A stretch of 64,000 bases of DNA from Desulfurivibrio dismutans (lineage in GTDB: Bacteria; Desulfobacterota; Desulfobulbia; Desulfobulbales; Desulfurivibrionaceae), in the NCBI RefSeq assembly GCF_029210385.1, contig NZ_JARGDQ010000001.1, positions 248,001 to 312,000 of the forward strand, written 5' to 3'. Of this stretch, positions 2,286 through 55,030 are shown piece by piece. Every line of letters begins with the position of its first letter. Position 1 is the stretch's first letter. Under the pieces are notes generated by a model. The model was not told the DNA's origin, did no database searches, and was given only the letters and a program-made list of their open reading frames with translations. Position numbers and translations under genes: made by a program.

Positions 2286-2420
2286 ATCGTCAATAATGAA
2301 GTCGCAAAAAGTCCGTCCATGGGCTTTTTGCTCCTCACAAATCGATAGCTTACCAAGCAAGCTATCGATTTGCGCGACCACCCAAGGGCGCGTTGATGAT
2401 TGCTTGCGAAGTCATCAATC
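2286..2420 (+). repeat. Intergenic palindromic element, copy A
   Basis: Two hairpins sit between rpoH and the aminotransferase gene. The first pairs CAAAAAGTCC (2305-2314) with GGGCTTTTTG (2321-2330) with one G-T pair. The second is a perfect 14 bp stem, 2338-2351 with 2359-2372, core AAATCGATAGCTT. The right end, TTGCGAAGTCATCAATC (2404-2420), matches the arm of the elements at 26.2, 27.3, 32.9 and 36.1 kb, and it lies 26 bases before the next start codon. The left piece GAAGTCGCAAAAAGTC (2299-2314) looks like a complementary arm. The central part differs from the other copies, so this may be a related subtype. The first hairpin could also serve as the rpoH terminator. Confidence 0.6.
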
Positions 2421-25056: not shown

Positions 25057-25112
25057 CCCGGGAAAGAGATTGACGTGAACTATGATAGCTTTACAAGAAC
25101 CCGTCATACGTG

Positions 25113-26171
25113 ATGGTCGGTAATATGGCAACAGGCAGTTGTAAAGCGTGTCCAGGTGGTGGCGCTGTTTTTTGCGGCGCCGACAAATTTGTCGCCATCG
25201 GCGAGGTGGTCTGGGATATCTTTCCGGATCGGCAAGTGCTGGGGGGGGCGCCGATCAATGTCGCCTACCACCTGGCGGTGCTGGGACTGCCGGTGCGGGT
25301 GATCACCCGGGTGGGCAGCGATACTCTTGGTGATCTCACCCTGGCCCGCCTGGCCGAGCTGGGCTTGCCGCTGACCGGGGTGCAGCGCGATCCCGAGCTG
25401 CCCACCGGGCAGGTGCGGGTGGAATTTGGTGCCGACGGCGAGCCCGGTTATGATATTGTCGCGCCGGCGGCCTGGGATAATATTGATCCGGAACAGGCGT
25501 TGCGCGCGGTCCGGGATGGTGAGCGGCAAGCTCCCCCGGGGGGCGGCGAGCCCCGCCGCGCGGGGTTGGCGCAGCGGGAGATCGACGGGGACGGGGAGGA
25601 TTTCGGTCTGATTTTCGGCACCCTGGCCCAGCGCGACCCTCGCTCCCGGCAGGCGGTGCGGCGGTTGGCGGCGGCGGCCGGCCGCCGCTATTATGATGTC
25701 AACCTGCGTCCGCCCTCCACCACCCGGGAACTGGTCCTTGAGTCACTGGCTTTGGCCGACGTGGTCAAAGTCAATGGTGAGGAGTTGGGGCAGTTGGCCG
25801 CCTGGCTGGAATTGCCGGCCGCTGCGGCCGCTGGGGCAGCGGCTGCCGGGGAAGGCGCCCAGTCGCTGGTCGATCCGCAGCGGGAGCAGATGGCCGCCGC
25901 CATCCGGGAACGCTACCAGTTGGAGGCCCTGGTGGTAACCGAAGGCGCGGCGGGAGCCTGGGTGCGGACGGCGGCCCAAACCTGGGCCGCCGCCGGCGAA
26001 CCGGTGCCGGTGGCCGATACGGTGGGGGCCGGTGACGCCTTCTTTGCCGCATTGATTGTCGCTTACCAGCAAAAGCTGCCCTGGCCGGAGATCCTGGGCC
26101 GGGCCAACCGGCGAGGCGCGTACGTCGCCGGCCAGGCCGGGGCAACCCCGGAGATGCCCGCCGCTTTGTAA
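25113..26171 (+). CDS. PfkB-family fructokinase
   Basis: Sugar kinase of about 352 residues, probably ATP:fructose 6-phosphotransferase given its place after sucrose synthase. Substrate-site motifs: VAIGEVVWDIFP, GGAPINVAYHLAVLG; the C-terminal PfkB signature DTVGAGDAFFAAL carries the catalytic aspartate. Two odd parts are seen. There is an N-terminal extension of about 28 residues before the first beta strand. A low-complexity insert (ERQAPPGGGEPRRAG..., about 25520-25600) interrupts the region where fructokinases normally run straight into FGTLAQRD. The DNA there is extremely GC-rich and palindromic. Starts at 25110 (GTG), 25113 or 25125 are possible, none with a strong ribosome site. Confidence 0.87.
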   Translation: MVGNMATGSCKACPGGGAVFCGADKFVAIGEVVWDIFPDRQVLGGAPINVAYHLAVLGLPVRVITRVGSDTLGDLTLARLAELGLPLTGVQRDPELPTGQVRVEFGADGEPGYDIVAPAAWDNIDPEQALRAVRDGERQAPPGGGEPRRAGLAQREIDGDGEDFGLIFGTLAQRDPRSRQAVRRLAAAAGRRYYDVNLRPPSTTRELVLESLALADVVKVNGEELGQLAAWLELPAAAAAGAAAAGEGAQSLVDPQREQMAAAIRERYQLEALVVTEGAAGAWVRTAAQTWAAAGEPVPVADTVGAGDAFFAALIVAYQQKLPWPEILGRANRRGAYVAGQAGATPEMPAAL

Positions 26172-26242
26172 TAACGGCGGCAATTAACAACCGTCGGCCG
26201 GAGCGGCATTTAGCGGCAACTTGATCTGTAAGCGATCACTTA

Positions 26243-26340
26243 CCTTGCAAAAAAACCGCGCCGCCGACTGGGCACACTTTGAACTGTTTTTTTCGCGTTG
26301 CCGACCAACAACTTTGGCAGTTTTTTGCAAGGATATCAAC
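26243..26340 (+). repeat. Interspersed intergenic element, copy B (upstream of purC)
   Basis: Perfect 12 base inverted arms CCTTGCAAAAAA (26243-26254) and TTTTTTGCAAGG (26321-26332) enclose a core shared with copy E at 36.1 kb. Block 26251-26281 matches 36149-36179 at 28 of 31 positions and block 26291-26332 matches 36191-36232 at 35 of 42 without gaps. A small stem CCAA-CAACT-TTGG precedes the right arm. The element lies 24 bases before the purC start and the arm's AAGG could act as a ribosome site for an upstream ATG at 26348. Confidence 0.75.
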
Positions 26341-26363
26341 TTCAACCATGAGACCAGAACAAG

Positions 26364-27248
26364 ATGAGCGAGCCCCTCTACCAAACCGATTTTTCCGGCC
26401 TTGAACTTTTGCACCGGGGTAAGGTGCGCGATCTGTACCGGGTGGATGATTATCTGCTGATGGTGGCCTCAGACCGGATTTCCGCTTACGATGTGGTGAT
26501 GAATGAGCCGATTCCCGGCAAAGGGGTTATTTTGACCGCCATGTCGCTGTTCTGGTTTGATTATCTGCAGGATATTTTGCCCAATCACCTGCTGACCGCC
26601 GACCCCGCGCATTATCCCGCTTCCTGCAAACCATACCAGGCACAACTCAAGGGGCGCAGCATGCTGGTCAAAAAAGCCCGCCCGCTGCCGGTGGAGTGCA
26701 TTGTCCGGGGTTATCTTTCGGGCTCTTTCTGGGCGGCTTACCGGCGTAATCCAACGGTTTGCGGCTTTGCGCTGCCGACCGGGCTGCGGGAGTCGGATAA
26801 GTTGCCGGAACCCATTTTTACCCCTTCCACCAAAGCAGCTCTGGGGGCGCACGACGAAAATATTTCCCTGGCGCAGATGGAGAAACTGTTGGGGAGCGGA
26901 CTCAGCGGCCGGGTACAGGAGGTGAGCCTGGAGCTGTACCGCAAGGCGGCGGATTACGCTCAGTCGCGGGGGATTATCATTGCCGACACCAAGTTTGAGT
27001 TGGGCCTGGATGAAAACGACCAACTGATCCTCATTGATGAGGCTCTGACCCCCGATTCTTCCCGTTTCTGGCCGGCGGATCGGTATCAGCCCGGCGGCCC
27101 CCAGCCCAGCTTCGACAAACAGTTTCTGCGGGATTATCTCTCCGGCCTGGATTGGCCCAAGTCCCCCCCGCCCCCGCCGCTGCCGTCGGAAATCATTGAA
27201 AAAACGGCGGCCCGCTACCGGGAGGCCCTGCAGCAGCTGACCGCCTAG
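26364..27248 (+). CDS. purC: SAICAR synthetase (phosphoribosylaminoimidazole-succinocarboxamide synthase)
   Basis: Couples CAIR with aspartate using ATP in de novo purine synthesis. The 294-residue protein is of the longer bacterial/yeast ADE1 type and begins with LLHRGKVRDLYRVDDYLLMVASDRISAYD, the PurC signature. It continues with LPVECIVRGYLSGSFW, and IIADTKFELGLDENDQLILIDEALTPDSSRFWP near the C-terminus. Length and ends are normal. Upstream is the repeat element copy B rather than a recognisable promoter; downstream 240 bases hold copy C. The adjacent sucrose genes are on the same strand but separated by 190 bases. Confidence 0.97.
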   Translation: MSEPLYQTDFSGLELLHRGKVRDLYRVDDYLLMVASDRISAYDVVMNEPIPGKGVILTAMSLFWFDYLQDILPNHLLTADPAHYPASCKPYQAQLKGRSMLVKKARPLPVECIVRGYLSGSFWAAYRRNPTVCGFALPTGLRESDKLPEPIFTPSTKAALGAHDENISLAQMEKLLGSGLSGRVQEVSLELYRKAADYAQSRGIIIADTKFELGLDENDQLILIDEALTPDSSRFWPADRYQPGGPQPSFDKQFLRDYLSGLDWPKSPPPPPLPSEIIEKTAARYREALQQLTA

Positions 27249-27282
27249 GACGGGCGCCCCCCCCCTCCTCATTTTGGACTGA

Positions 27283-27406
27283 TTTTAGCAAGATCATCAA
27301 ACTTGTCGGCATTGCTGGTGCCCGCCGACTAAGCCATTATTGCCGCTCTTGTTTGACCAAAACCCGACCAATAAGTTTGATTGGTTTTGGCGAGGTCATC
27401 AAACTT
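27283..27406 (+). repeat. Interspersed intergenic element, copy C (upstream of hybrid kinase)
   Basis: Two 22 base direct copies, 27283-27304 and 27385-27406, both ending in ATCATCAAACTT or GTCATCAAACTT, agree at 19 positions; the three differences are all A/G. Between them is a GTCGGC (27305-27310) / GCCGAC (27324-27329) hairpin shared with copy D, then CCGACCAA and the stem CCAAT-AAGTTTG-ATTGG as in copies B and E. The region 27249-27489 has no gene; the kinase begins 83 bases after the element. Confidence 0.7.
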
Positions 27407-27489
27407 ATTTGACAAAATTGCCGAAAACAGTTTTCCTGGCAGGGACCACGCTGCTACTGTTGTTAAAAAACATTATTCCCGGGTGATTG

Positions 27490-30400
27490 ATGCTCAACTC
27501 CCTTTTTGGCCGGTTTTTTCTGGCTTCCCTGGTATCAGCTTTGCTGACCGTGCTGCTGACCGTGCTGGCGATTTATTACCCCGCCGCCCCGGCTCTGGTG
27601 GTGTGGGCGGTGGTCCTGCTGACGGTGGCGGTGGCGGCGGCCGGTACGGCCTGGCTGTTCAGTGCCGGGATCAGGCAAGAACTGGGAAAACTGTCGGTCT
27701 GGCTGGCCGATTTTGTGGGCCGTGGCGACATCCGGCGCGAACCTCCTGCGGTGGGCCTGGCCGATTGTGCCCAGCCGTTGCATCAATTCCAAAAAATGAT
27801 GGCCTGGCAGCAGGAGATCCTGGAAATCTGCTGGGCGGCCCGGGAGGGTAAGCCGGCCCGTCGCTTACCGTCGCGCAGCGACCAGGATCAGTTGACCCCC
27901 GCCTTTAACGGCCTGCTGGATGAATTGCACCAGGCCAACCTCGGTTATGCCGAGGCGATCAGTTATCTGCACGCTATTCCCACCCCGGTACAGGTGGTTG
28001 ACCGTGACCTGAACATTCGTTTCATCAACCAGGCCGGGGCCCGGGCGGCCCGCTTGGCGGTGGGGCAGTGCATCGGCAAAAAATGTCACGAGATCTTTCG
28101 CACCCGGGACTGTAACTCCGATCGCTGCAAAGTGGTCCGGGCGATGATCCAGAACCGGACCCTGACCGGAGAGAATGTCTCCATCACCGCCCGCGGTGAA
28201 GCCCCTTACCGTTACACCGCCGCGCCGCTTAAGGATGAGCATGGCCGAGTGATCGGCGCGGTGGAGTATATTGTTGATATCCGCGACGAGATGCGGGTGG
28301 TGGCGATGGCCGAGGCCATCGCCCAAGGGGATTACAGTATCAGCATCACCCCGCGCTCCGACGATGACCGCTTAAGCCATGCCCTGAACCGCATGGCGGC
28401 CACCTTGCAGGAACTGGAGTCCTCCCAGGAGGAAAGCCGCTGGCTCAATGAAGGGGTGGCGGCGGTGAGCGACCGCTTGCATGGTGAGCATGATCAACTC
28501 AGCCTGGCTCATAACGTGCTGGAAGCCCTGGTCGATGTCATGGATGTCCAGGTGGCCGCCTTCTATCTGGCCCAGGACGAAGAGACCCTGCGGCTGATCA
28601 AGACCTATGGTGGCACCGCTGAAATTGAAGCCCGGACCGCAGTGCACCGTAATGAGGGCCTGGTGGGTCGGGCCCTGCAGGAAGGCCGGTTGCTGGTGAT
28701 CAACGATCTGCCGCCGGGTTACTTGAAAATTTCCTCCGGGCTGGGTGAGGTGGCAGCGGCCGCCGTGGCGGTACTGCCGGTTTATTTTGAAAATGAACTG
28801 CGCTGTGTGATCGAACTGGGCACCCATCGTGCTTTTTCCCCGCGAGAAGAGGAATTGCTGCGCCGGGTGACGGAAAATATCGGGGTGGCTGTGCATACCG
28901 CCGAGGTTCGGCACGAACTGGCCCGCCTGCTGGAAACCACGCAGGAGCAGGCGGAAAAACTCCAGGTGCAGCAGGAGGAACTGCGCCAGACCAACTCCGA
29001 GCTGCAGGAGCAGGCCAAGTACCTGGCCGCTTCCGAAGAGCGGCTCCAGGTGCAGCAGGAGGAACTGCGGGTTTCCAATGAGGAGCTGGAGGAGCGCTCC
29101 CGCACTCTGGCCGAAAAGAACCGGGAACTGCTGAAGGCACGTCAGGAACTGGAGGAAAAGGCCGGGGCGCTGGAGGTGTCCGGGCGTTACAAATCGGAAT
29201 TTCTGGCCAACATGAGCCATGAATTGCGCACCCCGCTTAACAGCATCCTGATTCTCTCCCAGATGCTGGCCGCCAATAAAGATGGCAACCTGCTGCCCCG
29301 CCAACTGGAATACGCCACCACCATTCACAACTCCGGTTCCGATCTGTTGAACCTGATCAACGAGGTGTTGGATCTCTCTAAGATCGAGGCCGGCCGGATG
29401 GACATCCACCCGGAAACAATCAACCTCAAGGCCCTGCTCGACAGCCTGCTGGATCCCTTCCGGCCCATGGCCGAGGAGAGGCAGCTGGCTCTTGCCGGTG
29501 AGCTGGCCGAGGACCTGCCGGTAACCATTTTTTCCGACGAAAGCAGATTGCGCCAGATTCTCAAAAACCTGCTTGCCAATGCCCTGAAATTCACCCGCCA
29601 GGGAGAGATCATGGTTGCCGTCGGCCGCCCCGCTGGCGGTGAGTTGCCGGTCGGCCTCAACCTGGACCCAGCCCGGGTCCTGTTTTTTCAGGTCAGCGAT
29701 TCCGGTATCGGGATTGCCGCCGACAAGCTGGAGGTGGTGTTCGAGGCTTTTAAGCAGGCTGACGGCACCACCAGCCGCAAGTTCGGCGGCACCGGCCTGG
29801 GGTTGTCCATTTCCCGGCAGCTGGCCCGCCTGCTGGGGGGCGAATTGACCGCCGCCAGCCGGGAAGGGGAGGGCAGCACCTTTACCCTTTGGCTGCCCGA
29901 GCGCCTGGAAAAGAGGAGAGATATCGCCCCGTTGCCGGGACCAGCGAGATCAGCCGGAGCGGCCGGGGGCGAATTGGCGGCGCCGGAGGTGTCGGCTCAC
30001 GCCGCCAAGCAGACCAGCCCGCCGGAGACGCCGGTTGCCACCAGCCCCTCAGCCGCTGCCGCGGCCCCGGCGGACCATGGTCTTGCTGCCGCCGGCCAGC
30101 CGCTGCCTCAGGCCCCCGACGCCTTGGTGCGGGATGATCGCCGCATCATCAGCCGGGAAGACAAAAGCCTGCTGATCATTGAGGACGACAGTTCCTTTGC
30201 CTCGCTGTTACTGGAGTTGGCCCGGGAGAAGGGCTACAGAGGGCTGGTGGCCGAAGATGGGGAAACCGGGCTGCATCTGGCCGATTATTACCGGCCCAGC
30301 GGCATTATCCTCGATATGGGCCTGCCGGGTATAAGTGGTCGGGAGGTCATGGAGCGGCTGAAGAAAAATCCGGAAACCCGGCACATTCCGGTTCATGTCA

Positions 30401-31119
30401 TTTCCGCCAGCGACCCTTCCACTGAGGTGATGCAGTTGGGGGCGGTGGGCTTTCTCACCAAGCCGGTGAGTGTGGATAAGCTGGATCTGGTCTTCAGTCG
30501 CATTGAAAAACTGGCGGAAAGCCCGGTGAAAAGGCTGCTGGTGGTGGAAGACGATCTGGTGCAGCGCCGGGCGATCCGGGCCATGGTGGGCGAGGGCGGC
30601 GACATCGAGGTGGTGGAGGCCGCCAATGGCGAAGAAGCCCACCGTTTATTAACCGAAGAAAATTTCGATTGCGTGATTTTGGATCTGGGGCTGGGCGATA
30701 TGAGCGGCTTTGATTTGATGACTAAAATCAAGGACGACCCCAGTATTTGCCAGGTGCCGGTGGTGATCTACACCGGCCGGGAGATCAGCCCCGATGAGGA
30801 GGAGCGGTTGCAGCAATATGCCGATTCCATCATTATCAAGGGGGCCCGCTCGCCGGACGCCTGCTCGATGAAACCACCCTCTTTCTCCACCGAGTGGAAA
30901 AGAGCCTGCCCAGCCGGCAACAGGAGGTGCTTAAAACCCTGCACAACCGGGAGTCGACCTTTGCCGACCGGACGGTGTTGCTGGTGGATGACGACATGCG
31001 CAACATCTTCGCCCTCTCCAGCGTGCTGGAAGAGGCCGGTCTGGAGATCGTGGTGGCCCGCGACGGCCGGGAAGCCCTGCAGAAACTTGCCGAACACCCG
31101 GAGGTCGATCTGGTGCTGA
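27490..31119 (+). CDS. Large membrane hybrid histidine kinase, frameshifted near 30860
   Basis: Open frame of 1209 codons. It has two N-terminal transmembrane helices (about 6-30 and 34-57) and a PAS domain near YLHAIPTPVQVVDRDLNIRF with a cysteine-containing DCNSDRC loop. A HAMP-like linker, a GAF domain (about 335-470) and a long coiled coil follow. HisKA carries FLANMSHELRTPLN (H577) and HATPase FGGTGLGLSISRQ. Receiver 1 has D942, receiver 2 D1065. After IIIKGARSPD (about residue 1123) the frame turns to Trp/Cys/Arg-rich nonsense, while the +1 frame continues with LLDETTLFLHRVEKSLP and a third receiver ending at 31334. One missing C near 30859 (GACGCC for GACCGCC) explains this. It could be a sequencing error or a real mutation. 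Repeat element C precedes it; cheR follows the third receiver with an ATGA overlap. Confidence 0.85.
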   Translation: MLNSLFGRFFLASLVSALLTVLLTVLAIYYPAAPALVVWAVVLLTVAVAAAGTAWLFSAGIRQELGKLSVWLADFVGRGDIRREPPAVGLADCAQPLHQFQKMMAWQQEILEICWAAREGKPARRLPSRSDQDQLTPAFNGLLDELHQANLGYAEAISYLHAIPTPVQVVDRDLNIRFINQAGARAARLAVGQCIGKKCHEIFRTRDCNSDRCKVVRAMIQNRTLTGENVSITARGEAPYRYTAAPLKDEHGRVIGAVEYIVDIRDEMRVVAMAEAIAQGDYSISITPRSDDDRLSHALNRMAATLQELESSQEESRWLNEGVAAVSDRLHGEHDQLSLAHNVLEALVDVMDVQVAAFYLAQDEETLRLIKTYGGTAEIEARTAVHRNEGLVGRALQEGRLLVINDLPPGYLKISSGLGEVAAAAVAVLPVYFENELRCVIELGTHRAFSPREEELLRRVTENIGVAVHTAEVRHELARLLETTQEQAEKLQVQQEELRQTNSELQEQAKYLAASEERLQVQQEELRVSNEELEERSRTLAEKNRELLKARQELEEKAGALEVSGRYKSEFLANMSHELRTPLNSILILSQMLAANKDGNLLPRQLEYATTIHNSGSDLLNLINEVLDLSKIEAGRMDIHPETINLKALLDSLLDPFRPMAEERQLALAGELAEDLPVTIFSDESRLRQILKNLLANALKFTRQGEIMVAVGRPAGGELPVGLNLDPARVLFFQVSDSGIGIAADKLEVVFEAFKQADGTTSRKFGGTGLGLSISRQLARLLGGELTAASREGEGSTFTLWLPERLEKRRDIAPLPGPARSAGAAGGELAAPEVSAHAAKQTSPPETPVATSPSAAAAAPADHGLAAAGQPLPQAPDALVRDDRRIISREDKSLLIIEDDSSFASLLLELAREKGYRGLVAEDGETGLHLADYYRPSGIILDMGLPGISGREVMERLKKNPETRHIPVHVISASDPSTEVMQLGAVGFLTKPVSVDKLDLVFSRIEKLAESPVKRLLVVEDDLVQRRAIRAMVGEGGDIEVVEAANGEEAHRLLTEENFDCVILDLGLGDMSGFDLMTKIKDDPSICQVPVVIYTGREISPDEEERLQQYADSIIIKGARSPDACSMKPPSFSTEWKRACPAGNRRCLKPCTTGSRPLPTGRCCWWMTTCATSSPSPACWKRPVWRSWWPATAGKPCRNLPNTRRSIWC

Positions 31120-31334
31120 TGGACATCATGATGCCGGAGATGGACGGTTATGAGGCCATGGGCCGGATCCGCCGTGATCCGGCCAAGGCCAAATTGCCCA
31201 TCATTGCGCTCACCGCCAAGGCCATGCGGGGTGACAAGGACAAATGTCTGGCCGCCGGGGCCAACGATTACCTGGCCAAGCCGGTGGATCCGGAACGACT
31301 GCTTTCCCTGCTGCGGGTTTGGCTGTACCAATGA
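30894..31334 (+). CDS. Third receiver domain of the hybrid kinase, now in a separate frame
   Basis: This 146-residue open frame continues the kinase after the frameshift. It starts MEKSLPSRQQEVLKTLHNRE and holds a full receiver: TVLLVDDDMRNIFALSSVLE, phospho-acceptor aspartate in LVLMDIMMPEMDGYEAM, and DYLAKPVD with the conserved lysine. VDDDMRNIFAL is the typical last receiver of such kinases. Translated alone it would be a free response regulator lacking its first linker. If the missing base near 30859 is restored, it becomes the C-terminus of one protein of about 1280 residues. Its stop overlaps the cheR start. Confidence 0.75.
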   Translation: MEKSLPSRQQEVLKTLHNRESTFADRTVLLVDDDMRNIFALSSVLEEAGLEIVVARDGREALQKLAEHPEVDLVLMDIMMPEMDGYEAMGRIRRDPAKAKLPIIALTAKAMRGDKDKCLAAGANDYLAKPVDPERLLSLLRVWLYQ

Positions 31335-32185
31335 GCCCGGCGCGCGAGGAACCGGCCGGTGAGGCCAAAGAGATCGAGGATCTGGAGATCAGCCTGCTGC
31401 TGGAGGCGATTTTCCGGCGCTACGGCTATGACTTCCGTGATTACGCCCGGGCTCATCTGCGCCGTCGGCTGCGCCACCGGCTGGAACTCGCGGGGTTGGC
31501 CGACCTGGGAGCTATGCAGCACCGGGTACTTAGTGACCGCGATTTTTTTGAGCTGCTGTTGCGGGATCTGTCCATCAATGTTACCGAGATGTTCCGCGAT
31601 CCGGCGGCTTACCGGCGGATCCGTGAAGACGTCGTGCCGCTGCTCAAGACTTACCCCTTTGTCAAGATCTGGCATGCCGGTTGTGCCACCGGGGAAGAGG
31701 TCTATTCCATGGCCATTTTGCTGCACGAAGAGGGCTTGCTGGAGCGCAGCCGGATCTATGCCACCGATTTTAACCGGGTGGCCCTGCAAAAGGCCCGGGA
31801 AGGGGTTTATTCTCTGGAGCGGGTCCGCCAGTACAGCAGCAATTACCAGAAAAGCGGCGGCCGGGCCTCCCTGGTGGACTACTACCGCACCGACAATGAG
31901 TCCATGCTGCTGAAGAACTGGCTGCGCCAACAGGTGGTCTTTGCCGACCACAACCTGGTTACCGACGGGGTGTTCAGCGAGATGCAACTGGTGGTCTGTC
32001 GCAATGTGGTAATTTATTTCAATCGGGATCTCCAGGAGCGGATTTTCAACACCTTTTACCAGAGTCTCTGCCCCGGTGGTTTTCTCTGGCTGGGAGCCAA
32101 AGAATCGCTGAAACTCCTGCAGATTGGGGAAAAATTCAGAGAGCTTTACGGCGAAGAGAAAATTTTCAAGAAAAATTTGCAATAA
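31331..32185 (+). CDS. CheR-type protein-glutamate methyltransferase
   Basis: S-adenosylmethionine-dependent O-methyltransferase of the chemotaxis CheR family, 284 residues. The N-terminal helical domain (about 15-80) is followed by the SAM fold with INVTEMFRDPAAYRRI, WHAGCATGEEVYSMAILLHE (SAM motif I) and VVCRNVVIYFNRDLQERIF. It starts in the stop codon of the kinase's third receiver (ATGA) with no strong ribosome site of its own, so it depends on kinase translation. No methyl-accepting receptor, CheA or CheW is encoded in the window, so the target is probably not a classical chemoreceptor array. Confidence 0.93.
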   Translation: MSPAREEPAGEAKEIEDLEISLLLEAIFRRYGYDFRDYARAHLRRRLRHRLELAGLADLGAMQHRVLSDRDFFELLLRDLSINVTEMFRDPAAYRRIREDVVPLLKTYPFVKIWHAGCATGEEVYSMAILLHEEGLLERSRIYATDFNRVALQKAREGVYSLERVRQYSSNYQKSGGRASLVDYYRTDNESMLLKNWLRQQVVFADHNLVTDGVFSEMQLVVCRNVVIYFNRDLQERIFNTFYQSLCPGGFLWLGAKESLKLLQIGEKFRELYGEEKIFKKNLQ

Positions 32186-32230
32186 TTCCGCCGCCGGGGT
32201 TAAGTTAAGGCGGTCGAATAATCATCAGCC

Positions 32231-32842
32231 ATGGCCAACCAAAGATCAAAGCAGCCTGCAGGCTCCCAAGATTTGCCCTACCGGGCCGTGGTGATCGGCG
32301 TGTCAGCCGGAGGGCTGGAGGCCCTGCGGGAAGTGTTAAGCTGTTTGCCGGCGGATTTTCCGCTGCCGCTGCTGGTGGTCCAGCACCTGGGGGTTGACTC
32401 CGATGATTTTCTGGCTCGCTGGCTGGATCAGCGTTGCGCAATCAAGGTCAAAGAGGCTGAGGACAAGGAGCCGGCGGCGCCCGGCACCGCTTACCTGGCG
32501 CCGGCCAATTACCATCTGCTGATGGAGGACGACGGCTCGCTGGCCCTGTCCCTGGAGGACTGGGTTAACTTTTCCCGGCCCAGCATCGATCTGCTGTTTG
32601 AAAGCGCTGCCGAGGCCTACGGCAAAGGGCTGATTGCCGTGGTGCTGACCGGGGCCAATGATGACGGCAGCCGAGGTCTGGCGGCGATGAAACGCTCAGG
32701 CGGCCTGGCGGTGGTGCAGGACCCGGCGGGGGCTGAGTTTCCCGTCATGCCGCGGGCCGCCATCCAGGCCACTCAGGTGGATTTTGTTCTGCCGTTGCCG
32801 GCCATCGGCCGTTTTCTGGCCAATCTTTACCGACCGGCCTGA
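32231..32842 (+). CDS. CheB-type methylesterase without receiver domain
   Basis: Stand-alone CheB catalytic domain, 203 residues, lacking the N-terminal receiver of canonical CheB. The triad is visible: S25 in GVSAGG, H52 in VQHLG and D145 in TGANDDGSRGL. The opening VVIGVSAGGLEALREVLSCLP and PVMPRAAI near the end are typical. With no receiver, its activity is unlikely to be set by CheA phosphorylation. It lies 45 bases after cheR on the same strand and is followed within ten bases by repeat element D. Together with cheR it could make a reversible methylation pair acting on the large kinase, which is an inference. Confidence 0.93.
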   Translation: MANQRSKQPAGSQDLPYRAVVIGVSAGGLEALREVLSCLPADFPLPLLVVQHLGVDSDDFLARWLDQRCAIKVKEAEDKEPAAPGTAYLAPANYHLLMEDDGSLALSLEDWVNFSRPSIDLLFESAAEAYGKGLIAVVLTGANDDGSRGLAAMKRSGGLAVVQDPAGAEFPVMPRAAIQATQVDFVLPLPAIGRFLANLYRPA

Positions 32843-32851
32843 GGGTTTTGG

Positions 32852-32975
32852 TTTTGGCAATAAATTAAAATTGTCGGCGCTGCTGGGGCGCCGCCGACTG
32901 ATTACCAACCACCGTTTTTTGTGCCGGTGGCGGTGATCAGCACTTTTGACGGGTTTTTGCGAGGCCATCAAAATT
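32852..32975 (+). repeat. Interspersed intergenic element, copy D (abuts cyclase start codon)
   Basis: The left piece TTTTGGCAATAAATTAAAATT (32852-32872) is loosely like the right piece 32954-32975, which contains TTTTTGCGAGGCCATCAAAA. Behind the left piece is the GTCGGC (32873-32878) / GCCGAC (32893-32898) hairpin shared with copy C. A longer hairpin pairs CTGATTACC...CCACCG (32898-32916) with CGGTGG...GGTGATCAG (32925-32940). The element ends exactly at the ATG of the cyclase gene, so its GAGG (32961-32964) is the only ribosome-site candidate. Confidence 0.7.
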
Positions 32976-34034
32976 ATGCCGGGGATGCCGAAAATCCTGA
33001 TTGTCGATGACCAGCCGGCCAACCTGCTGGTGATGGAAAGCCTGCTTGAAGGGGTGGGGGCGATGCTGATTACCGCCACCTCCGGTGAGCAGGCCCTGTC
33101 CCTGCTGCTGGAGCACGACTTTGCCCTGATTCTGCTGGATGTGCAGATGCCCGGCATGGATGGATTTGAAACCGCCAGCCTGCTGCGGGGGCGCAAGCAG
33201 ACCAAACACTTGCCGATCATCTTCGTCACCGCCATCAGCAAAGAGGACGAGCATGTCTTTAAGGCCTATCAGGCCGGCGCCGTGGACTATCTCTTTAAGC
33301 CCATCAATCCTTATATCCTGCGCAGCAAGGTGGAGATCTTTTTGCAACTCGACCATCAGCAGCGCCTGCTGGCTAAAAAAAGCGTCGAGTTGGACCTCAA
33401 GGTGCGGGAACTGTTGGGGGTTAAGGCCCAGTTGGAAGAGGCCAACGCCCGGCTCAACGAACTATCTCTCACCGACGCGTTGACCGGTCTCAGTAACCGT
33501 CGCTGTTTCCAGGAAACCATTCAGGCCGAATGGCGGCGGGCCATGCGCAACCGGCATCCGCTGACCCTGCTGCTGGGTGATATCGACTCGTTCAAGCAGT
33601 TTAACGACAACTTTGGACATCTGGTTGGTGATGAGTGCCTGGTCAGGATCGCCGAGGTGATCCGCAGTCCCCTGATGCGACCCTCCGATCTGGTTGCCCG
33701 TTTCGGCGGGGAGGAGTTTGTGATTTTGTTGCCGGAAACCGACCTGGAAGGCGGGCGACATCTGGCCGAGACCATCCGCCGGGAAGTGGAGAAGATGAGG
33801 ATTTCTCACCCGGAATCGGCCACCGGGCTCCAGTTGACCATGAGCTTCGGGGTATCATCGGTGGTGCCGCGGCCGGATATCTCCGAGCAGGATCTGGTTT
33901 GCGCCGCCGACAAGGCCCTTTATGTGGCCAAGGAAAGCGGGCGTAACCGGGTGCAGATCCAGGGGCCGGAGGCGCTGCTGGGCACCCTCGGCCAGACTGG
34001 GTATATCTCCGGTGATGAGGGGGGGGCTGAATAG
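32976..34034 (+). CDS. Response-regulator diguanylate cyclase (REC-GGDEF)
   Basis: Makes c-di-GMP from two GTP under control of phosphorylation; 352 residues, WspR/PleD-like in layout. The receiver (about 4-120) starts PKILIVDDQPANLLVMESLL, has its phospho-acceptor in LILLDVQMPGMDG and ends with DYLFKPINPYILRSK. A coiled-coil linker leads to the GGDEF domain, with ALTGLSNRRCF, GDIDSFKQFNDNFGH and the active-site loop RFGGEEF. RPSD lies just before it at the usual inhibitory-site position. Catalysis and product inhibition both look intact. It starts at the very end of repeat element D; ATG 32985 is an alternative. It is the likely output for the kinase cluster. Convergent with the DnaJ-like gene after 28 bases. 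Confidence 0.94.
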   Translation: MPGMPKILIVDDQPANLLVMESLLEGVGAMLITATSGEQALSLLLEHDFALILLDVQMPGMDGFETASLLRGRKQTKHLPIIFVTAISKEDEHVFKAYQAGAVDYLFKPINPYILRSKVEIFLQLDHQQRLLAKKSVELDLKVRELLGVKAQLEEANARLNELSLTDALTGLSNRRCFQETIQAEWRRAMRNRHPLTLLLGDIDSFKQFNDNFGHLVGDECLVRIAEVIRSPLMRPSDLVARFGGEEFVILLPETDLEGGRHLAETIRREVEKMRISHPESATGLQLTMSFGVSSVVPRPDISEQDLVCAADKALYVAKESGRNRVQIQGPEALLGTLGQTGYISGDEGGAE

Positions 34035-34062
34035 CGGTTTGCGGTTTGCCGGCAAGCTCCTT

Positions 34063-35025
34063 CTAAAGCCCGGTGGCCGCCATTTTTTGCACCAGATCGC
34101 GCTGTTCTGCCGTAAGCTTGCCGGGCATTTTCAGATTGATGCGGACCAGCAGGTCGCCCCGTGCGCTGCCGCCGGTACCCGGCAGCCCCTGGCCTTTCAG
34201 GCGCAGCTTGGCGCCGGGCTTGCTGCCGGGGGGCACCTTGACTTTGAGCCGGCGCCCCTCCAAGGTGGGCACGGCGATGTCGGTTCCCAGCAGGGCGCCG
34301 CTCAGGGGAATTTCCTGGTCCACCACCAGGTTACGACCCTCCCGGATGAACACCGGGTGAGGTTTTACCCGGACCAGCAACAGCAAGTCACCCGGCGGGC
34401 CGGCCATGGGCGATGGGGCGCCCTTGCCGCTGACTCGCAGCTTTTTGCCGTCTTCAATGCCGGTGGGGATCTTAACCGTTACCTTGTCGGCCTGGCCGCC
34501 CCGCCCCAGGGAAATGGTCTTTTCGCTGCCGTGCAGCACCTCTTCCAGGGTTACCGGCATTTCCAGGCTTAAATCGTTGCCCTTAACCATTTGCCGACGG
34601 CGTGGGTCCTGTTGAAACTGGCGGAAATCCTGGCCTTGGCCGCCCATGCCGCTCATGCCGTCGACCCCGAACAGTTCGTCGAAAAAGCTTGGCCCGCCGC
34701 CCATACCGCGGTGAAAAGTAGCTCGGCCGCCGCCCAGATTGATACCGAACTCCCGCAAGATGTCGTTGATGTTGGCGTTGCGGAAGATATCTTCCTGGGA
34801 GTAGCGTTGCTGGAACCCGTCCGAGCCGAAGGTGTCATACTGCTTGCGCTTTTCCGGGTCACTCAGCACGGCATAGGCCTCACTGATTTCCTTGAAGCGG
34901 CTTTCCGCCTCCTTGTTACCCTGGTTGCGGTCCGGGTGATATTTCAGGGCCAGCTTGCGATAGGCCTTCTTGATCTCTGCCGGGCTGGCGTTGCGCTCAA
35001 CCCCTAAAGCTTTGTAATAATCCAT
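34063..35025 (-). CDS. cbpA: DnaJ-family co-chaperone, CbpA-like (no zinc finger)
   Basis: Hsp40 co-chaperone of 320 residues. The J domain (1-70) carries HPD at 30-32 in [10 protein letters not shown] Gly/Phe-rich stretch (about 95-135) follows, then the two C-terminal peptide-binding domains with [32 protein letters not shown] and [20 protein letters not shown]. The cysteine-rich zinc finger of DnaJ is absent, so it matches CbpA/DjlA-type class B Hsp40s. It is monocistronic here, with the long hairpin after rlpA lying 127 bases upstream of its start. AAGGA is found some twelve bases before the ATG. Confidence 0.92.
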
Positions 35026-35151
35026 TGCCGATGGTCGTCCTTGTCCTGGTAAAAGCCTGAATCAAGCATAAAAAAAAGTCATAAACGAGAAAAACAACTC
35101 GGAGGGACTATAATTATCCCCCACCCGTTTGGCAAGCCGTCTGCAAAAAAC

Positions 35152-35259
35152 AAAAACATTCGGCAGTGTCGCAGGTTCGGGCAAGCAGCCAGGCGCAGCG
35201 TACCCCAGGTACGTAAGCCTGGCTGATCGCCCGAAGATGCGGCGCTGCCGAATGTTTTT
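35152..35259 (-). terminator. Very long stem-loop at the 3' end of rlpA
   Basis: Starting at the rlpA stop codon, nested arms pair almost throughout about 108 bases: AAAAACATTCGGCAG (35152-35166) with CTGCCGAATGTTTTT (35245-35259), TTCGGGC (35175-35181) with GCCCGAA (35228-35234), CAGCCAGGC (35186-35194) with GCCTGGCTG (35217-35225), and GTACC with GGTAC at the tip. Read from rlpA the stem ends in a U-rich tract, so it can act as an intrinsic terminator. The length is far more than termination needs, and it may be a mobile palindromic repeat. Confidence 0.7.
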
Positions 35260-36107
35260 CAGTGGGCCACGACGAAGGCGTCGGTAAACCCGGCCTCAAT
35301 CATCACCCGCTCAAAGCGCATGGCACCGCTTAAGGTGTCGCCGGCCGCCACCTGGACCCGGTAAAACAACCGGCCCCCGTGGTCGTATTCCCGGATAACC
35401 GCCGTTCGGCCCCATTCCTGCAACTGATCACGCAGGCGGACGGCGTTTTCCCGCACCGTGAAGGCGCCGACCTGAACGTAAAATTCACCGTGTTCAAAAT
35501 CCGGGGTTGCGGCGAAACGCTGGCGTACCCGGCCGTCCTCCAGATAGTGTTCGGTGGCCCCCAGGGCGGTGATCCTTACCTGGGCCAGCCCCTGGTCGGC
35601 CATGCCCAGCTCTTGCGCGGCGCGGTATGAAAGATCGATTATTCGCCCCCTGACGAAAGGCCCCCGGTCGTTGATCCGGACGGTGATTTCCTTGCCGTTT
35701 TCCAGGTTTTCCACCAGCAGGTGAGTGTCCATGGGCAGGGTTTTGTGGGCGGCGGTCATAGCATGCATGTCGTATATTTCGCCGTTGGAGGTGCGGCGGC
35801 CATGAAATTTGCGGCCATACCAGGAGGCAATCCCGGTTTCCGAGTAGCCGTGGGCTGAAGGGATGGGATAGTAGGTGATCCCCTGGATCTGGTAGGGCCG
35901 CTGAGTGGGCGGAATTCTGCCGGCCGGCGGCTGGGCCGGAGAATACGGCGGCGCCTCCACCCGGCTTTTGCCGGTGGGGCTGGAGATTATCGGCGGTTTG
36001 CCGCAGGCGCTGAGCGCCAGCAAGAGCAGCAGCAAGGCGCCCAGCAGTCGGTGGCTGCGGTGAAGGTGGTATGCCGTGGCGAGTCGCTGGTTATTTGATC
36101 TGTTCAT
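35259..36107 (-). CDS. rlpA: RlpA-family septal-ring lipoprotein with SPOR domain
   Basis: Outer-membrane lipoprotein of 282 residues, in this family a lytic transglycosylase acting on naked glycan strands. The N-terminal basic/hydrophobic segment ends with the lipobox LSAC, lipidated cysteine C35. The double-psi beta-barrel domain (about 88-180) has ETGIASWYGRKFHGRRTSNGE and VRINDRGPFVRGRIIDLSYRAA, including the conserved His and Asp of active RlpA. The SPOR domain (about 208-282) with EFYVQVGAFTVRENA binds denuded peptidoglycan at the division site. It is alone on this strand, terminated by the long stem-loop after its stop; the divergent upstream region carries repeat element E. Confidence 0.92.
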   Translation of the reverse strand: MNRSNNQRLATAYHLHRSHRLLGALLLLLLALSACGKPPIISSPTGKSRVEAPPYSPAQPPAGRIPPTQRPYQIQGITYYPIPSAHGYSETGIASWYGRKFHGRRTSNGEIYDMHAMTAAHKTLPMDTHLLVENLENGKEITVRINDRGPFVRGRIIDLSYRAAQELGMADQGLAQVRITALGATEHYLEDGRVRQRFAATPDFEHGEFYVQVGAFTVRENAVRLRDQLQEWGRTAVIREYDHGGRLFYRVQVAAGDTLSGAMRFERVMIEAGFTDAFVVAH

Positions 36108-36134
36108 GGTGTTTTCCCAATCGCCCCCGCAATA

Positions 36135-36240
36135 TTGTCAGCGCCGCAAAAAGCCGCGACGCCGACTGGGCACGCTTTGTGACTACTTGCTTTCGCGTTA
36201 CCGACCAACACGATTGGCGGGTTTTTGCGAGGTTGTCAGT
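36135..36240 (+). repeat. Interspersed intergenic element, copy E (between rlpA and pyrG)
   Basis: About 106 bases with imperfect inverted ends: TTGTCAGCGCCGCAAAAAGC (36135-36154) and TTTTTGCGAGGTTGTCA (36222-36238). The core matches copy B at 26.2 kb: blocks 36149-36179 and 36191-36232 agree at 28/31 and 35/42. GCCGACTGGGCAC, CCGACCAACA and the stem CCAA-CACGA-TTGG are conserved. Its right arm points to pyrG on the plus strand, though 260 bases away from that start codon. Confidence 0.75.
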
Positions 36241-36502
36241 GTTGGGGTTATGGCCAAGGGAGCCGTTGGTGGTGGCCCGTAAACGTTGAACCGGGCTCAC
36301 TTTATCCGTCCCGGCTCAAAAAGTCCCGGCTTTTTACTTTTCCTCAAGACAAGTTGGTGCTATATTCGGCCCGATAAAGGTCGGCCAGGGAAAAAAGGCC
36401 GCGCCTGTCAACCTCTCACTGTCATTATCACCACGGCACGATGGTCGGCGCATGCAGCAGTGTCGACCCGCACCAGACCAATTTGTTGCAGAACCGGGAT
36501 CC
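36241..36502. other. Leader region of pyrG
   Basis: No gene is apparent. A hairpin AAAAAG (36318-36323) / CTTTTT (36330-36335) with loop TCCCGG followed by a T-rich run looks like a weak terminator and recalls the first hairpin of copy A. A TATATT string (36361-36366) could be a -10 element but its -35 partner is poor. GTCCCGGCT occurs twice (36309-36317 and 36323-36331). No pyrG-type C-tract start site was recognised. Confidence 0.35.
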
Positions 36503-38185
36503 ATGAAATCTTCCGAACGGACCACGCGAACCAAGTTTATTTTCATCACCGGCGGAGTTCTCTCTTCGCTGGGCAAGGGCCTGGCCGCCGCCGCCATCGG
36601 CGCGCTGCTGGAAAGCCGGGGCCTGACCATCACTTTTCAGAAGCTGGACCCTTACATCAATGTGGACCCCGGCACCATGAACCCCTTTCAGCACGGCGAG
36701 GTTTATGTGACCGACGACGGGGCCGAAACCGACCTGGATCTGGGGCATTATGAGCGTTACACCTCGGTGAGCCTGAGTCAGCGCAACAACTATACCTCGG
36801 GGCGCATTTACCATACGGTGATCAGCAAAGAGCGCCGGGGTGAATATCTGGGCGGGACGGTGCAGGTGATTCCCCATGTCACCGACGAAATCAAGGCCGC
36901 CGTGCGGCAGCTGGAAGGTGAGGTGGATGTGGCCATCATTGAAATCGGCGGCACCATCGGCGACATTGAATCGCTGCCCTTTCTCGAGGCCATTCGGCAA
37001 CTGCGCAGTGATCTTGGGCGGGAAAACACTTTGTATCTGCATGTTACCCTGGTGCCTTTTATCAAGACCGCCGGCGAGGTCAAGACCAAACCCACCCAGC
37101 ACAGCGTCAAGGAACTGCGGGCCATCGGCATTCAGCCCGATATCCTGCTTTGTCGCACCGAATCGACGCTGAGCGACGAGTTGAAGGCCAAGATCAGCCT
37201 GTTCTGTAATGTCGATCGGGACGCGGTGATCACCGCCCGCGATGTCGACAATATTTATGAAGTGCCCCTGTGGTTCCACAAGGAAGGGCTGGACGACAAA
37301 ATCCTCAAGCTGCTCAACGTCTGGACCGGTTCCCCTCGCCTGGAGCCTTGGAGCGAACTGGTGGAGAAGATCAAAAACCCCGCCGGGGAAGTCAGTATCG
37401 CCATCATCGGCAAATATGTGGAGCTGAAGGAATCATACAAAAGCCTGCATGAGGCCCTGGTACATGGCGGCGTGGCCAATGACAACCGGGTGGTATTGCG
37501 TTATGTCAGTGCCGAGGATATCGAAGTTCATGGCCTGGAAGGGGCGGCCACGCTGCTGGCCGGTTGCCACGGCATCCTGGTCCCCGGCGGTTTTGGCGGT
37601 CGCGGGGTGGCGGGAAAACTCATGGCTATTCGTTATGCCCGGGAGCAGAAGGTGCCCTTTTTCGGGATCTGTCTGGGGATGCAGTTGGCCACCGTCGAGT
37701 TTGCCCGCCATGTGGCCGGTCTTAAGGAGGCCGACAGTACCGAGTTCAACGCCAAAACGCCGCACCCGGTGATTTACTTTATCAAGGAGTGGTACGATTA
37801 TCGTACCAGCCAGGTGCAGGTCCGGGATGAGGCCACCGATCTTGGGGGCACCCTGCGGCTGGGGAGTTATCCCTGCCGGTTGCAGCCCGGTACCAACGCC
37901 ATGGAAGCCTACGGCGAGGAGCTGATCAATGAACGGCACCGGCATCGCTACGAGTTCAATAACGAGTACCGCCGACCGCTGACCGAAAAAGGGTTGGTAA
38001 TCAGTGGCACCTCCCCGGATGACAAGCTGGTGGAAATTGTGGAACTGGCTGATCATCCATGGTTTTTGGGGTGTCAGTTCCACCCTGAGTTCAAGTCCCG
38101 ACCCATGCAGCCGCATCCGCTGTTTACCGCTTTTATTAAAGCCGCCATGAACCATCAGCAAGCCGCCGCCGGACCGTATGACTGA
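36503..38185 (+). CDS. pyrG: CTP synthase
   Basis: Amidates UTP to CTP with glutamine and ATP; 560 residues, close to the usual 545. The synthetase domain begins [20 protein letters not shown] (P-loop) and contains [19 protein letters not shown] and [14 protein letters not shown]. The glutamine amidotransferase domain has [19 protein letters not shown] with the nucleophile cysteine, and [11 protein letters not shown] with the His/Glu pair. ATG 36503 is preferred over 36452 because the family starts close to TKFIFITGG. It overlaps kdsA by eight bases; this pyrG-kdsA-kdsC-lptC order is a common proteobacterial envelope operon, with CTP also needed to activate Kdo. Confidence 0.97.
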
Positions 38186-39041
38186 GACGATGCAACCAGT
38201 GGAGATTGCCGGACGCTTCCAGGTCGGGCCCGGGCAACCGCTCTGTCTGCTGGCCGGGCCATGCGTCATTGAGTCCGAGCCGGTCATGCGCCAAACGGCC
38301 GGTTGCCTTAAGGAAATCTGCTCCGGCCTGGGTATCAACCTGATTTTCAAGGCCTCGTTCGACAAGGCCAACCGGACCTCACTGGAATCCTACCGGGGGC
38401 CGGGGGCAGGCGAGGGGCTGGCCCTGCTGGCGGCCATTGGCCGTGAATTCGAACTCCCCCTGGTGTCCGATGTCCATGAAAGTGGGCAGGTGGCGGCGGC
38501 GGCGGCCGTGCTTGATGTGCTGCAGATTCCCGCTTTTCTCTGCCGCCAGACCGATCTCCTGGTGGCGGCGGCGCAAAGCGGTAAGCCGGTGAACCTGAAA
38601 AAGGGCCAATTCGCTGCTCCCTGGGATATGGCCCACGCTACGGCCAAGATTCGCGCTGCTGGCGCCGGTGGGCTGCTGCTCACCGAACGGGGCAGCAGCT
38701 TCGGATACAACAACCTGGTGGTGGATATGCGTTCTCTGCCGCTGATGCGGGAGTTGGGCTGTCCGGTTATCTTTGACGCCACCCACAGTGTCCAGTTGCC
38801 CGGTGGTGCCGGTGGCACCTCCGGCGGTCAGCGCCGCTTTGTACCGACCCTGGCGCGGGCGGCGGCGGCGGTCGGGATCGACGGCCTGTTCATGGAGGTG
38901 CATCCCGACCCGGATCGGGCCCTGTGCGATGGCCCCAACTCCTGGCCCCTGGGCCAGGTGGAAGAACTCTTGCGTCAAGTTCTGGCCATCCACCAACTGA
39001 CCAGGGCTGACATTGCCGGAGGCGGCCATGGCGGGGTCTGA
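38178..39041 (+). CDS. kdsA: 3-deoxy-8-phosphooctulonate (Kdo-8-P) synthase
   Basis: Condenses phosphoenolpyruvate with arabinose 5-phosphate, first step toward Kdo for lipopolysaccharide. The 287-residue protein has [10 protein letters not shown] near the start, [34 protein letters not shown] (here [17 protein letters not shown]), [13 protein letters not shown] and [12 protein letters not shown], the complete KdsA motif series. It overlaps pyrG upstream and kdsC downstream (by 14 bases), so the genes are translationally linked. Confidence 0.97.
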
Positions 39042-39660
39042 CGGGGCCAGCAATTATCCTTCCGACTGCGAGATTACCCAGGGGCTGCGGCAACGGGCGC
39101 TGGCCCGGGCTACTGAACCGGCGCCAAGCTATGCCTGGAAAAACTGTGTCCCCCGGGCCGCCGGGATCAAACTGTTGCTGCTGGATGTCGATGGGGTGCT
39201 GACTGATTCCACCATTGTGTACGGGCCGGAAGGCTATGAGATGAAGTCTTTTTCCACCCGCGACGGACTTGGTATCAGGCTGTTGCGGGAGGCTGGCGTG
39301 GAAACCGGGCTGATCACCGCCCGTACTTCCGAGACCGTGCGCCGCCGGGCTGAAGATCTGCATTTGCGGCATGTCTACCAGGGTCAGGGAGAGAAGATCC
39401 AGGTCTGGCAGCAGATTCTGGCGGAGGAAAAGTTGGGTCCCGAGCAGGTGGCCTACGTTGGCGATGACTGGCTCGATCTGCCCCTGCTGCTGCGGGCCGG
39501 TTTGGCGGTGGCGGTGGCGGATGCGGTGGCCGAAGTGCGGCAGGTGGCCCACTATGTCACCCAGGCTGCCGGGGGCCGGGGAGCGGTGCGGGAAGTCTGT
39601 GAGCTGATCATCGCCGCCCAGGGAATGCGGGAAAAACTGCTGGCTACCTACGCCCGCTAA
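39028..39660 (+). CDS. kdsC: Kdo-8-phosphate phosphatase (HAD family)
   Basis: Removes phosphate from Kdo-8-P; 210 residues, longer than the usual 170-190 because of a ~45-residue N-terminal extension ([13 protein letters not shown]...) rich in Arg/Ala with no recognised motif. The C0-type HAD core has [13 protein letters not shown] (D53 and D55), [22 protein letters not shown] and [15 protein letters not shown] 39028 follows GGAGG at 39018-39022. Gly/Asp motif IV is intact. The extension may be a real domain tail or start choice; no later ATG with a better ribosome site was seen before the core. Confidence 0.93.
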
Positions 39661-39706
39661 GTGAACGGTTGCGCAAATAACATAACAACCTGGATTAATT
39701 GATCTA

Positions 39707-54895: not shown

Positions 54896-55030
54896 CCGGC
54901 AACAGCAGAATCGTGCCCGGCAGGGCGTACTCCTTCGGCGGGCAGCTTTTTGGGGCGCCGCGAACAAGATTTTAGGTAATTGCTTACGATTCAAGGCCAG
55001 CAAGATTAACCAACCAGCAGGGAGAAAAAC

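What the first reader, a model, noticed from the sequence alone, without database searches (positions are those of the whole stretch)
26243..36240. A family of structured intergenic elements with a shared core (copies at 26.2, 27.3, 32.9 and 36.1 kb)
Copies B and E share two ungapped blocks (28/31 and 35/42 identities) and C and D share a GTCGGC...GCCGAC hairpin. B, C and E carry CCGACCAA and B-E carry CGCCGACT. All four finish with a TTTTGGCGAGG- or TTTTTGCGAGG-like arm followed by (T/C)CATCAA or a variant. They are 100-130 bases long, non-coding and strongly foldable. From memory, strings like TTTTTACGAGTTCATCAA are common in deltaproteobacterial genomes, but I know of no described function. 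They could be REP/MITE-like repeats or a leader RNA class.
Basis: partly seen in the sequence, partly recalled or inferred. Interest (0 to 1): 0.75.

Follow-up and report, generated by a model that had tools for sequence, protein, structure and literature searches.

The report
Family of small transposon-like repeats (MITEs)
The repeated intergenic elements are copies of a tiny gene-less jumping DNA element, about 100 bases long, that duplicates six bases of target DNA when it inserts; it has many copies in this genome and relatives with similar ends in many sulfate-reducing and related bacteria, and the enzyme that moves it is still unidentified.

Summary
A sequence model finds five clear copies in the window, not four (extra: 25079-25189, minus), plus one weak match, and at least 65 in the genome (scoring cap). 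[quoted passage not shown] In 20 of 44 copies the flanking 6-mers are identical, against 2.6 expected, at most 10 in 20,000 permutations. In a syntenic sister species the D site is exactly empty; the C site has a single copy of the 6-mer. Covariation is not clearly above shuffles, gene orientation is mixed and Rfam has no match, so a leader RNA is not supported. A second MITE family in this genome shares the end motif and 6-bp duplications. The motif occurs in 30 of 58 genomes of the order and in at least 116 stretches of named contigs, about 105 labelled Desulfobacterota-type. A DDE transposase acting in trans is inferred; no autonomous element was found. New member of a known kind, unusually widespread.

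The parts
36137..36237 (+). copy E: 101-bp MITE core, left end GTCAGCG, right end GGTTGTC
   Evidence: flanking 6-mers AATATT (36131-36136) and AGTGTT (36238-36243), 4 of 6 alike; the gap between conserved flanks is about 123 bp shorter in sister species G002
32873..32969 (+). copy D: 97-bp core
   Evidence: E=8e-11; exact duplication AAAATT at 32867-32872 and 32970-32975; exact empty site in G002 with a single GAGATT
27305..27400 (+). copy C: 96-bp core
   Evidence: E=8e-8; exact duplication AAACTT at 27299-27304 and 27401-27406; G002 has a single AAACTT followed by the homologous right flank, left flank not alignable next to it
27271..27298 (+). possible remnant of the right end of a further copy directly upstream of C (TTTTAGCAAGATCATC followed by AAACTT)
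   Evidence: weak model match 27271-27303, 6.8 bits, E=0.44; motif match 27283-27299; absent in G002
26244..26337 (+). copy B: MITE with degenerate left end, right end GATATC
   Evidence: E=6e-21; not at this place in G002, which has a different (palindromic) repeat there
   Evidence: E=7e-22; flanking 6-mers AAATTT / ATAGTT on the minus strand, 4 of 6 alike; G002 has the palindromic repeat here
2295..2416 (+). degenerate 122-bp copy of the second MITE family
   Evidence: no matching flanks here; better copies elsewhere in the genome, 5 of 8 with exact 6-bp duplications

Best explanation
The elements are one family of non-autonomous DNA transposons (MITEs), about 101 bp long. Shown: the core runs from GTCGGCGTCGCAAAAAGCCGC to GGCGGGTTTTTGCGAGNNNATC; its ends are imperfect inverted repeats sharing TCGCAAAAA; copies are flanked by a 6-bp direct repeat of an AT-rich palindromic target (AANNTT); site D is precisely empty and site C carries a single target copy in a syntenic sister species; copy number is patchy within the genus. 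Inferred: a DDE-type transposase supplied in trans recognises the ends (the TCGCAAAAA repeat, perhaps with the left-end GTCGGCG...CGCCGAC inverted repeat), cuts the target with a 6-bp stagger, and repair leaves the duplication. The elements encode no protein and need no RNA product; effects on neighbouring genes would be incidental. The transposase was not found.
For: Multi-copy: 44 BLAST matches in the own genome, at least 65 with the model. Target duplication: 20 of 44 copies have identical 6-mers against 2.6 expected (at most 10 in 20,000 permutations), and 204 of 264 flank letters agree, more than in any permutation. Within-copy agreement exceeds between-copy agreement at the variable positions 2-4 (77, 75, 70% against 53, 37, 29%) and is at background just outside the 6 bp (34 against 32%, 41 against 38%). 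Exact duplications become rarer with divergence from the consensus (9 of 15, 6 of 15, 5 of 14 by rank). Other genomes: exact in 9 of 11 G001 and 5 of 8 G002 loci (boundaries there were chosen with a small weight on the duplication). Empty sites C and D in collinear G002. Copy number in the genus: >=65, 54, 13, 1, 0. Second family in the same genome with the same end motif, 5 of 8 exact duplications. Related elements in named contigs: of 145 end pairs 80-260 bp apart in 88 of 116 loci, 58 have exact flanks against 2.7 expected, at most 10.
Against: No autonomous element with these ends was found in the loci held (469 loci, 1.7 Mb) or at transposases of two families tried; most families are untested. 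24 of 44 copies lack an exact duplication; I attribute this to age and to degenerate ends but did not show it case by case. At target positions 1, 5 and 6 the two flanks of a copy agree little or no more than flanks of different copies, because the target itself is conserved there (86 against 78%, 77 against 79%, 77 against 70%), so the exact length of 6 rests on the target consensus and on other families. Copy E has only a 4-of-6 flank match. The outermost six bases of the two consensus ends agree in only two. In distant relatives duplications are rarer: 2 of 13 in G043, 0 of 2 in G008, 0 of 2 in G009, 0 of 2 in G077, 1 of 1 in G011.
Confidence: 0.92

Rival explanations
1. A structured RNA class (5' leader or small RNA) transcribed from these intergenic places.
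For: Some copies fold better than shuffles (D minus strand z=-4.3). The left-end helix GTCGGCG/CGCCGAC keeps 94% of its cells paired, with changes on both sides in two of seven pairs; the tested structure scores above all versions slid by 1-3 columns, as expected also of a structure taken from the consensus.
Against: Copy E does not fold better than shuffles (z=-0.7 and +0.1). The consensus fold has a covariation term of -0.09 kcal/mol. For the two helices together, 45 of 500 shuffles reach the covariation score, 48 the number of doubly changed cells, 120 the number of doubly changed pairs, 103 the percentage paired. Flanking ORFs, called crudely, have mixed orientation relative to the element: 15 -/+, 15 -/-, 12 +/+, 2 +/-. 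No Rfam match. Target duplications and empty sites are not expected of an RNA gene.
Confidence: 0.03
2. REP/BIME-like palindromes spread by a REP-associated tyrosine transposase (RAYT).
For: Short, mostly between genes, foldable in part, multi-copy, sometimes in tandem (two and three copies side by side at C31 and C4).
Against: RAYT/IS200-type transposition leaves no target duplication (established knowledge), whereas a 6-bp duplication is clear here. No RAYT gene was looked for.
Confidence: 0.02
3. Sub-question within the MITE reading: the family is now immobile and its copy number reflects past bursts only.
For: Divergence of 44 copies from their consensus is 6-25%, median 14%; no transposase found.
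Against: Sites C and D are empty in a sister species whose blocks across this region are mostly 75-88% identical, so these insertions most likely postdate that split (precise excision there is the alternative); many copies keep exact duplications.
Confidence: 0.35

Closest known systems
Prokaryotic MITEs in general (review PMC10969869: abstract, search passages and the distribution section seen)
   Same: Under 500 bp, terminal inverted repeats, flanking direct repeats that fade with age, mostly intergenic, no coding capacity, clusters of adjacent copies.
   Different: No autonomous partner found; the window copies are not AT-rich (47-55% GC); an end motif shared across an order and beyond.
Chunjie MITE of Geobacter uraniireducens (known here only from passages of that review; the original paper is not held)
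   Same: 38 copies of 178-235 bp with conserved inverted ends and direct repeats, mostly intergenic, in a bacterium formerly classed with the deltaproteobacteria.
   Different: Longer; its end sequence and duplication length could not be compared, so a relation is neither shown nor excluded.
REP sequences / REPINs (recalled; not compared by any search)
   Same: Short intergenic multi-copy elements with inverted repeats.
   Different: Here a 6-bp target duplication; REPs have none.

Membership tests
MITE (non-autonomous DNA transposon) | Terminal inverted repeats | tested here: met
   Imperfect: left GTCGGCGTCGCAAAAAGCCGC, right (reverse complement) GATAACCTCGCAAAAACCCGC; the 13 inner positions form standard pairs in 83% of cells; the second family and many relatives have closer matching ends
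MITE (non-autonomous DNA transposon) | Target-site duplication of fixed length | tested here: met
   6 bp; 20 of 44 exact against 2.6 by permutation; replicated in other genomes and families
MITE (non-autonomous DNA transposon) | Short, non-coding, many copies per genome | tested here: met
   96-101 bp cores in the window, at least 65 copies in the genome
MITE (non-autonomous DNA transposon) | Insertion demonstrated by an empty site | tested here: met
   D precisely empty in G002; C with a single target copy and an alignable right flank only; B and E absent there but the junctions cannot be placed
MITE (non-autonomous DNA transposon) | Autonomous partner with the same ends | tested here: inconclusive
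   none in 469 loci, 1.7 Mb; IS1634 and ISNCY_2 loci lack these ends; other transposase families untested
Structured RNA family | Compensatory base changes above controls | tested here: not met
Structured RNA family | Transcription | not testable with these tools
   no RNA data
REP/REPIN | No target duplication | tested here: not met
   6-bp duplication present
REP/REPIN | Linked RAYT transposase | not tested
   no search made

The most novel reading that the evidence does not exclude
The window family is one branch of a MITE superfamily spread through Desulfobacterota, defined by ends GATGNNNTCG(C/T)AAAAA and a palindromic 6-bp target AANNTT, and moved by a transposase family not yet described or not yet tied to these ends. 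A core of about 101 bp with the left-end inverted repeat recurs in distant genera although the sequence has diverged (99-102 bp in 12 of 13 G043 loci; a 101-bp length also in three G016 loci, two with exact duplications), which would mean that the size and perhaps the left hairpin are requirements of the transposition complex. Other branches have other lengths (80-225 bp).
Probability: 0.25. Interest if true: 0.6.

Novelty: new member of a known kind. Interest (0 to 1): 0.42.

Why it matters
It explains a class of strings that recur between genes in sulfate-reducing and related bacteria, and warns against reading them as regulatory RNAs. The shared ends and the 6-bp target give a concrete handle for finding the transposase that has been reshaping these genomes. 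Presence or absence at syntenic sites gives insertion markers for uncultured species.

Tried and rejected
Autonomous partner. (a) Right-end motif in the own genome, 79 places inspected by eye: the one 1.2-kb inward pair, C30:130474-131690, encloses a cobT-like gene (my reading of the ORF) and its flanks do not match. (b) Strict motif in G029 and G053: two 2.9-kb pairs fetched enclose ordinary metabolic genes; their ends belong to separate short elements or do not share flanks. (c) Motif with one mismatch in G002 and G014: judged from coordinates only, apart from one G002 pair that is two separate 101-bp elements; G014 flanks were not fetched. (d) All 469 loci then held, pairs of 600-5000 bp with exact 6-mers and up to 3 mismatches per end: one chance case, L327. 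Long pairs with 5 of 6 flanks in named contigs (4 in 116 loci): three join neighbouring short elements listed, and the fourth, L347, is two 151-bp elements around an alpha/beta-hydrolase-like ORF. (e) ISNCY_2 (weak matches in 4 of 15 genomes, none over the cut-off; 6 loci checked) and IS1634 (matches in 27 of 58 genomes, 5 over the cut-off; 30 loci checked) do not carry the ends. One IS1634 locus, L242, gave a 1.7-kb pair with three mismatches at each end and 5 of 6 flanks; on inspection the ends do not resemble the motif. The multi-copy IS elements of G002 have other ends. (f) 23 unpaired ends read by eye for transposase ORFs, up to three ORF starts each: none recognised.

RNA reading: consensus fold, pair counts, Rfam: rejected as the main explanation. 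Promoter or terminator role: 4 promoter-like sites against 3.0 in shuffles and 20 terminator-like against 14.1 (sd 4.0) in 24900-36600; two of the latter lie in copies (26257-26276, 25148-25165). Phages and plasmids: own-family pattern 0 exact matches in viral contigs; related end motif in 1 and 3 viral contigs; no plasmid match for two queries at E<=1e-5.

Literature: nine searches, listings only, showed no description of these elements; three end strings occur in no held paper. Only open-licence papers are held. The Desulfobacterium autotrophicum genome paper (PMC2702500, search passages only) reports many exact repeats without describing such elements in those passages.

Rows kept and dropped: none of 44 dropped in the duplication test, although it includes copies with degenerate ends (L023, L024, L074, L075) and tandem copies (L015, L020, L029; L003, L016). 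7 of 44 were left out of alignment A2 (L020, L023, L024, L029, L071, L074, L075). Searches used 80 of the 116 named-contig loci; one search repeats the count on all 116. End-pair counts include chance combinations of ends. Gene context uses crude longest ORFs; 7 of 44 copies fell inside one. One search used stricter filters that lose weak matches. A list of duplications in my notebook names ATTTTT for L112; the check shows 5 of 6 there.
Full report
What was checked. I read the four places and aligned them. B and E align almost throughout; C and D share the left-end hairpin and the right arm with them. The right-arm motif TTTTTGCGAGNNCATCA occurs 12 times in the window with up to three mismatches, against 1.55 in shuffles. 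The own genome (G000, 2.84 Mb, 33 contigs; the window is C1:248001-312000) holds 44 BLAST matches to copy E, 76-100% identical. A sequence-only model from 37 of these finds 65 matches, the number it scored, so a lower bound.

Anatomy. Aligned with flanks, the copies have the core consensus GTCGGCGTCGCAAAAAGCCGCGCCGCCGACTGGGCACGCTTTGTAACTNCTTGTTTTCGCGTTACCGACCAACNCGTTTGGCGGGTTTTTGCGAGGTTATC. The two ends are imperfect inverted repeats around TCGCAAAAA; the left end also holds an inner inverted repeat GTCGGCG...CGCCGAC. The letters directly outside are a 6-bp direct repeat: 20 of 44 copies have identical 6-mers, while permuting the right flanks gives 2.6 on average and never more than 10 in 20,000 trials. 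Flanks of one copy agree more than flanks of different copies at positions 2 to 4 (77, 75, 70% against 53, 37, 29%); positions 1, 5 and 6 are conserved A, T, T in most copies and agree little or no more within than between copies; just outside, agreement is at background. The preferred target is AANNTT, a palindrome (58 exact duplications pooled).

Insertion. The sister species G002 (one contig) is collinear with window 22000-40000. At site D it reads GATAAGTT-GAGATT-ATGCCGGG where the window has AATAAATT-AAAATT-[97 bp]-AAAATT-ATGCCGGG. At site C it has one AAACTT followed by ATTTGACAAAAT where the window has AAACTT-[96 bp]-AAACTT-ATTTGACAAAAT; just left of it the two species do not align, and the window holds a possible remnant of another copy there. 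At E the gap is about 123 bp shorter in G002, but the junction cannot be placed. At B and at the fifth copy G002 carries a different, palindromic repeat. In return G002 has a decayed copy at window 39.66 kb where the window has none. Copy number in the genus is at least 65, 54, 13, 1 and 0 (G000 to G004; G001 and G003 are 77-79% complete, the others about 100%).

A wider family. The right-end motif with up to two mismatches occurs 79 times in the genome, against 3 for the reversed control. Part of these belong to a second MITE family: of eight places fetched, six are 153 bp and two are short forms of 46 and 56 bp, with ends GATGNNNTCGCAAAAAG or close to it, and five of eight have exact 6-bp duplications (ATAATT, ACCGTT, AAGTAT, AAAAAT, ATTAGT). 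The general end motif is present in 12 of 19 genomes, own included, and as TTGATGGNNTCGYAAAAAGTC in 30 of 58 genomes of the order, with none for the reversed control (G000 itself has no exact match to this stricter form). By my count of the titles about 105 carry Deltaproteobacteria, Desulfo-, Syntrophaceae or Thermodesulfobacteriota names, 7 only Proteobacteria or Pseudomonadota, 2 Nitrospirae, 1 Neomarinimicrobiota, 1 only 'bacterium'. In these 116 loci, 145 end pairs lie 80-260 bp apart when no duplication is required (chance combinations included); 58 have exact flanking 6-mers against 2.7 expected, at most 10; 61 agree at three or fewer letters. The own family in other genomes (40 loci; that scan gave the duplication a small weight when choosing boundaries): exact duplications in 9 of 11 G001, 5 of 8 G002, 0 of 1 G003, 2 of 13 G043, 0 of 2 G008, 0 of 2 G009, 1 of 1 G011, 0 of 2 G077. 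In the distant G043, 12 of 13 loci have a core of 99-102 bp with the same plan.

Mechanism. A fixed short duplication with inverted ends is the mark of a DDE transposase; that step rests on established knowledge and was not shown. The elements carry no gene, so the enzyme must act in trans. Whether the family still moves is open: divergence from the consensus is 6-25%, median 14%, exact duplications are commoner in the less diverged copies, and insertions C and D most likely postdate the split from G002.

RNA reading. The RNAalifold consensus is weak (-5.25 kcal/mol, covariation term -0.09). For the left hairpin plus pairing of the ends, the covariation score is reached by 45 of 500 shuffles and the number of doubly changed pairs by 120 of 500; pairing (86.9%) is hardly above shuffles (86.5%), because both sides are conserved sequence. 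The structure does score above versions slid by 1-3 columns, which a structure taken from the consensus would do anyway. Rfam gives nothing at its own thresholds in the window, and permissive matches in the region are far below the gathering scores of eukaryotic families. Flanking ORFs, called crudely, have mixed orientation.

Verdict. I did not establish the organism's name: the genome handles carry none.

Noticed in passing
window 35154-35257: A different, palindromic repeat of about 104 bp (CATTCGGCAGTGTCGCAGGTTCGGGCAAGCAGCC...GGCTGATCGCCCGAAGATGCGGCGCTGCCGAATG) with dozens of copies in G002 and many in G000, G001 and G003 (list cut). In 12 own copies the outer bases often change together on both arms, e.g. 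AAACGTT/AACGTTT and AATCGTT/AACGATT. It occupies the B and 25.1-kb sites in G002.
   Followed up: partly
G000:C4:13626-13943 (L015, L020, L029) and G000:C31:101946-102149 (L003, L016): Three and two copies of the 101-bp element in direct tandem, separated only by the 6-bp repeat: insertion into a flanking AANNTT or tandem duplication.
   Followed up: no
L112-L119 and L140:2790-2846 (own genome): Second MITE family with one end able to form a hairpin (GATGACTTCTTGCGAAGTCATC or its reverse) and inner palindromes; short forms of 46, 56 and 57 bp are little more than the two ends.
   Followed up: partly
window 54868-54961, minus: Weak model match to the 101-bp family (25 bits, E=7e-7) without a clear right end; may be a decayed copy.
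   Followed up: no
L470, L471, L472 (IMG/VR viral contigs): A related end motif with the same neighbouring sequence in three viral contigs, so phages might carry such elements between hosts.
   Followed up: partly
L134, L288, L335: Elements with the same ends that enclose or abut a palindrome of the type GTCATTCCGG...CCGGAATCC or CACCCCGGCGAAAGCCGGGGTCC, suggesting nested repeats.
   Followed up: no
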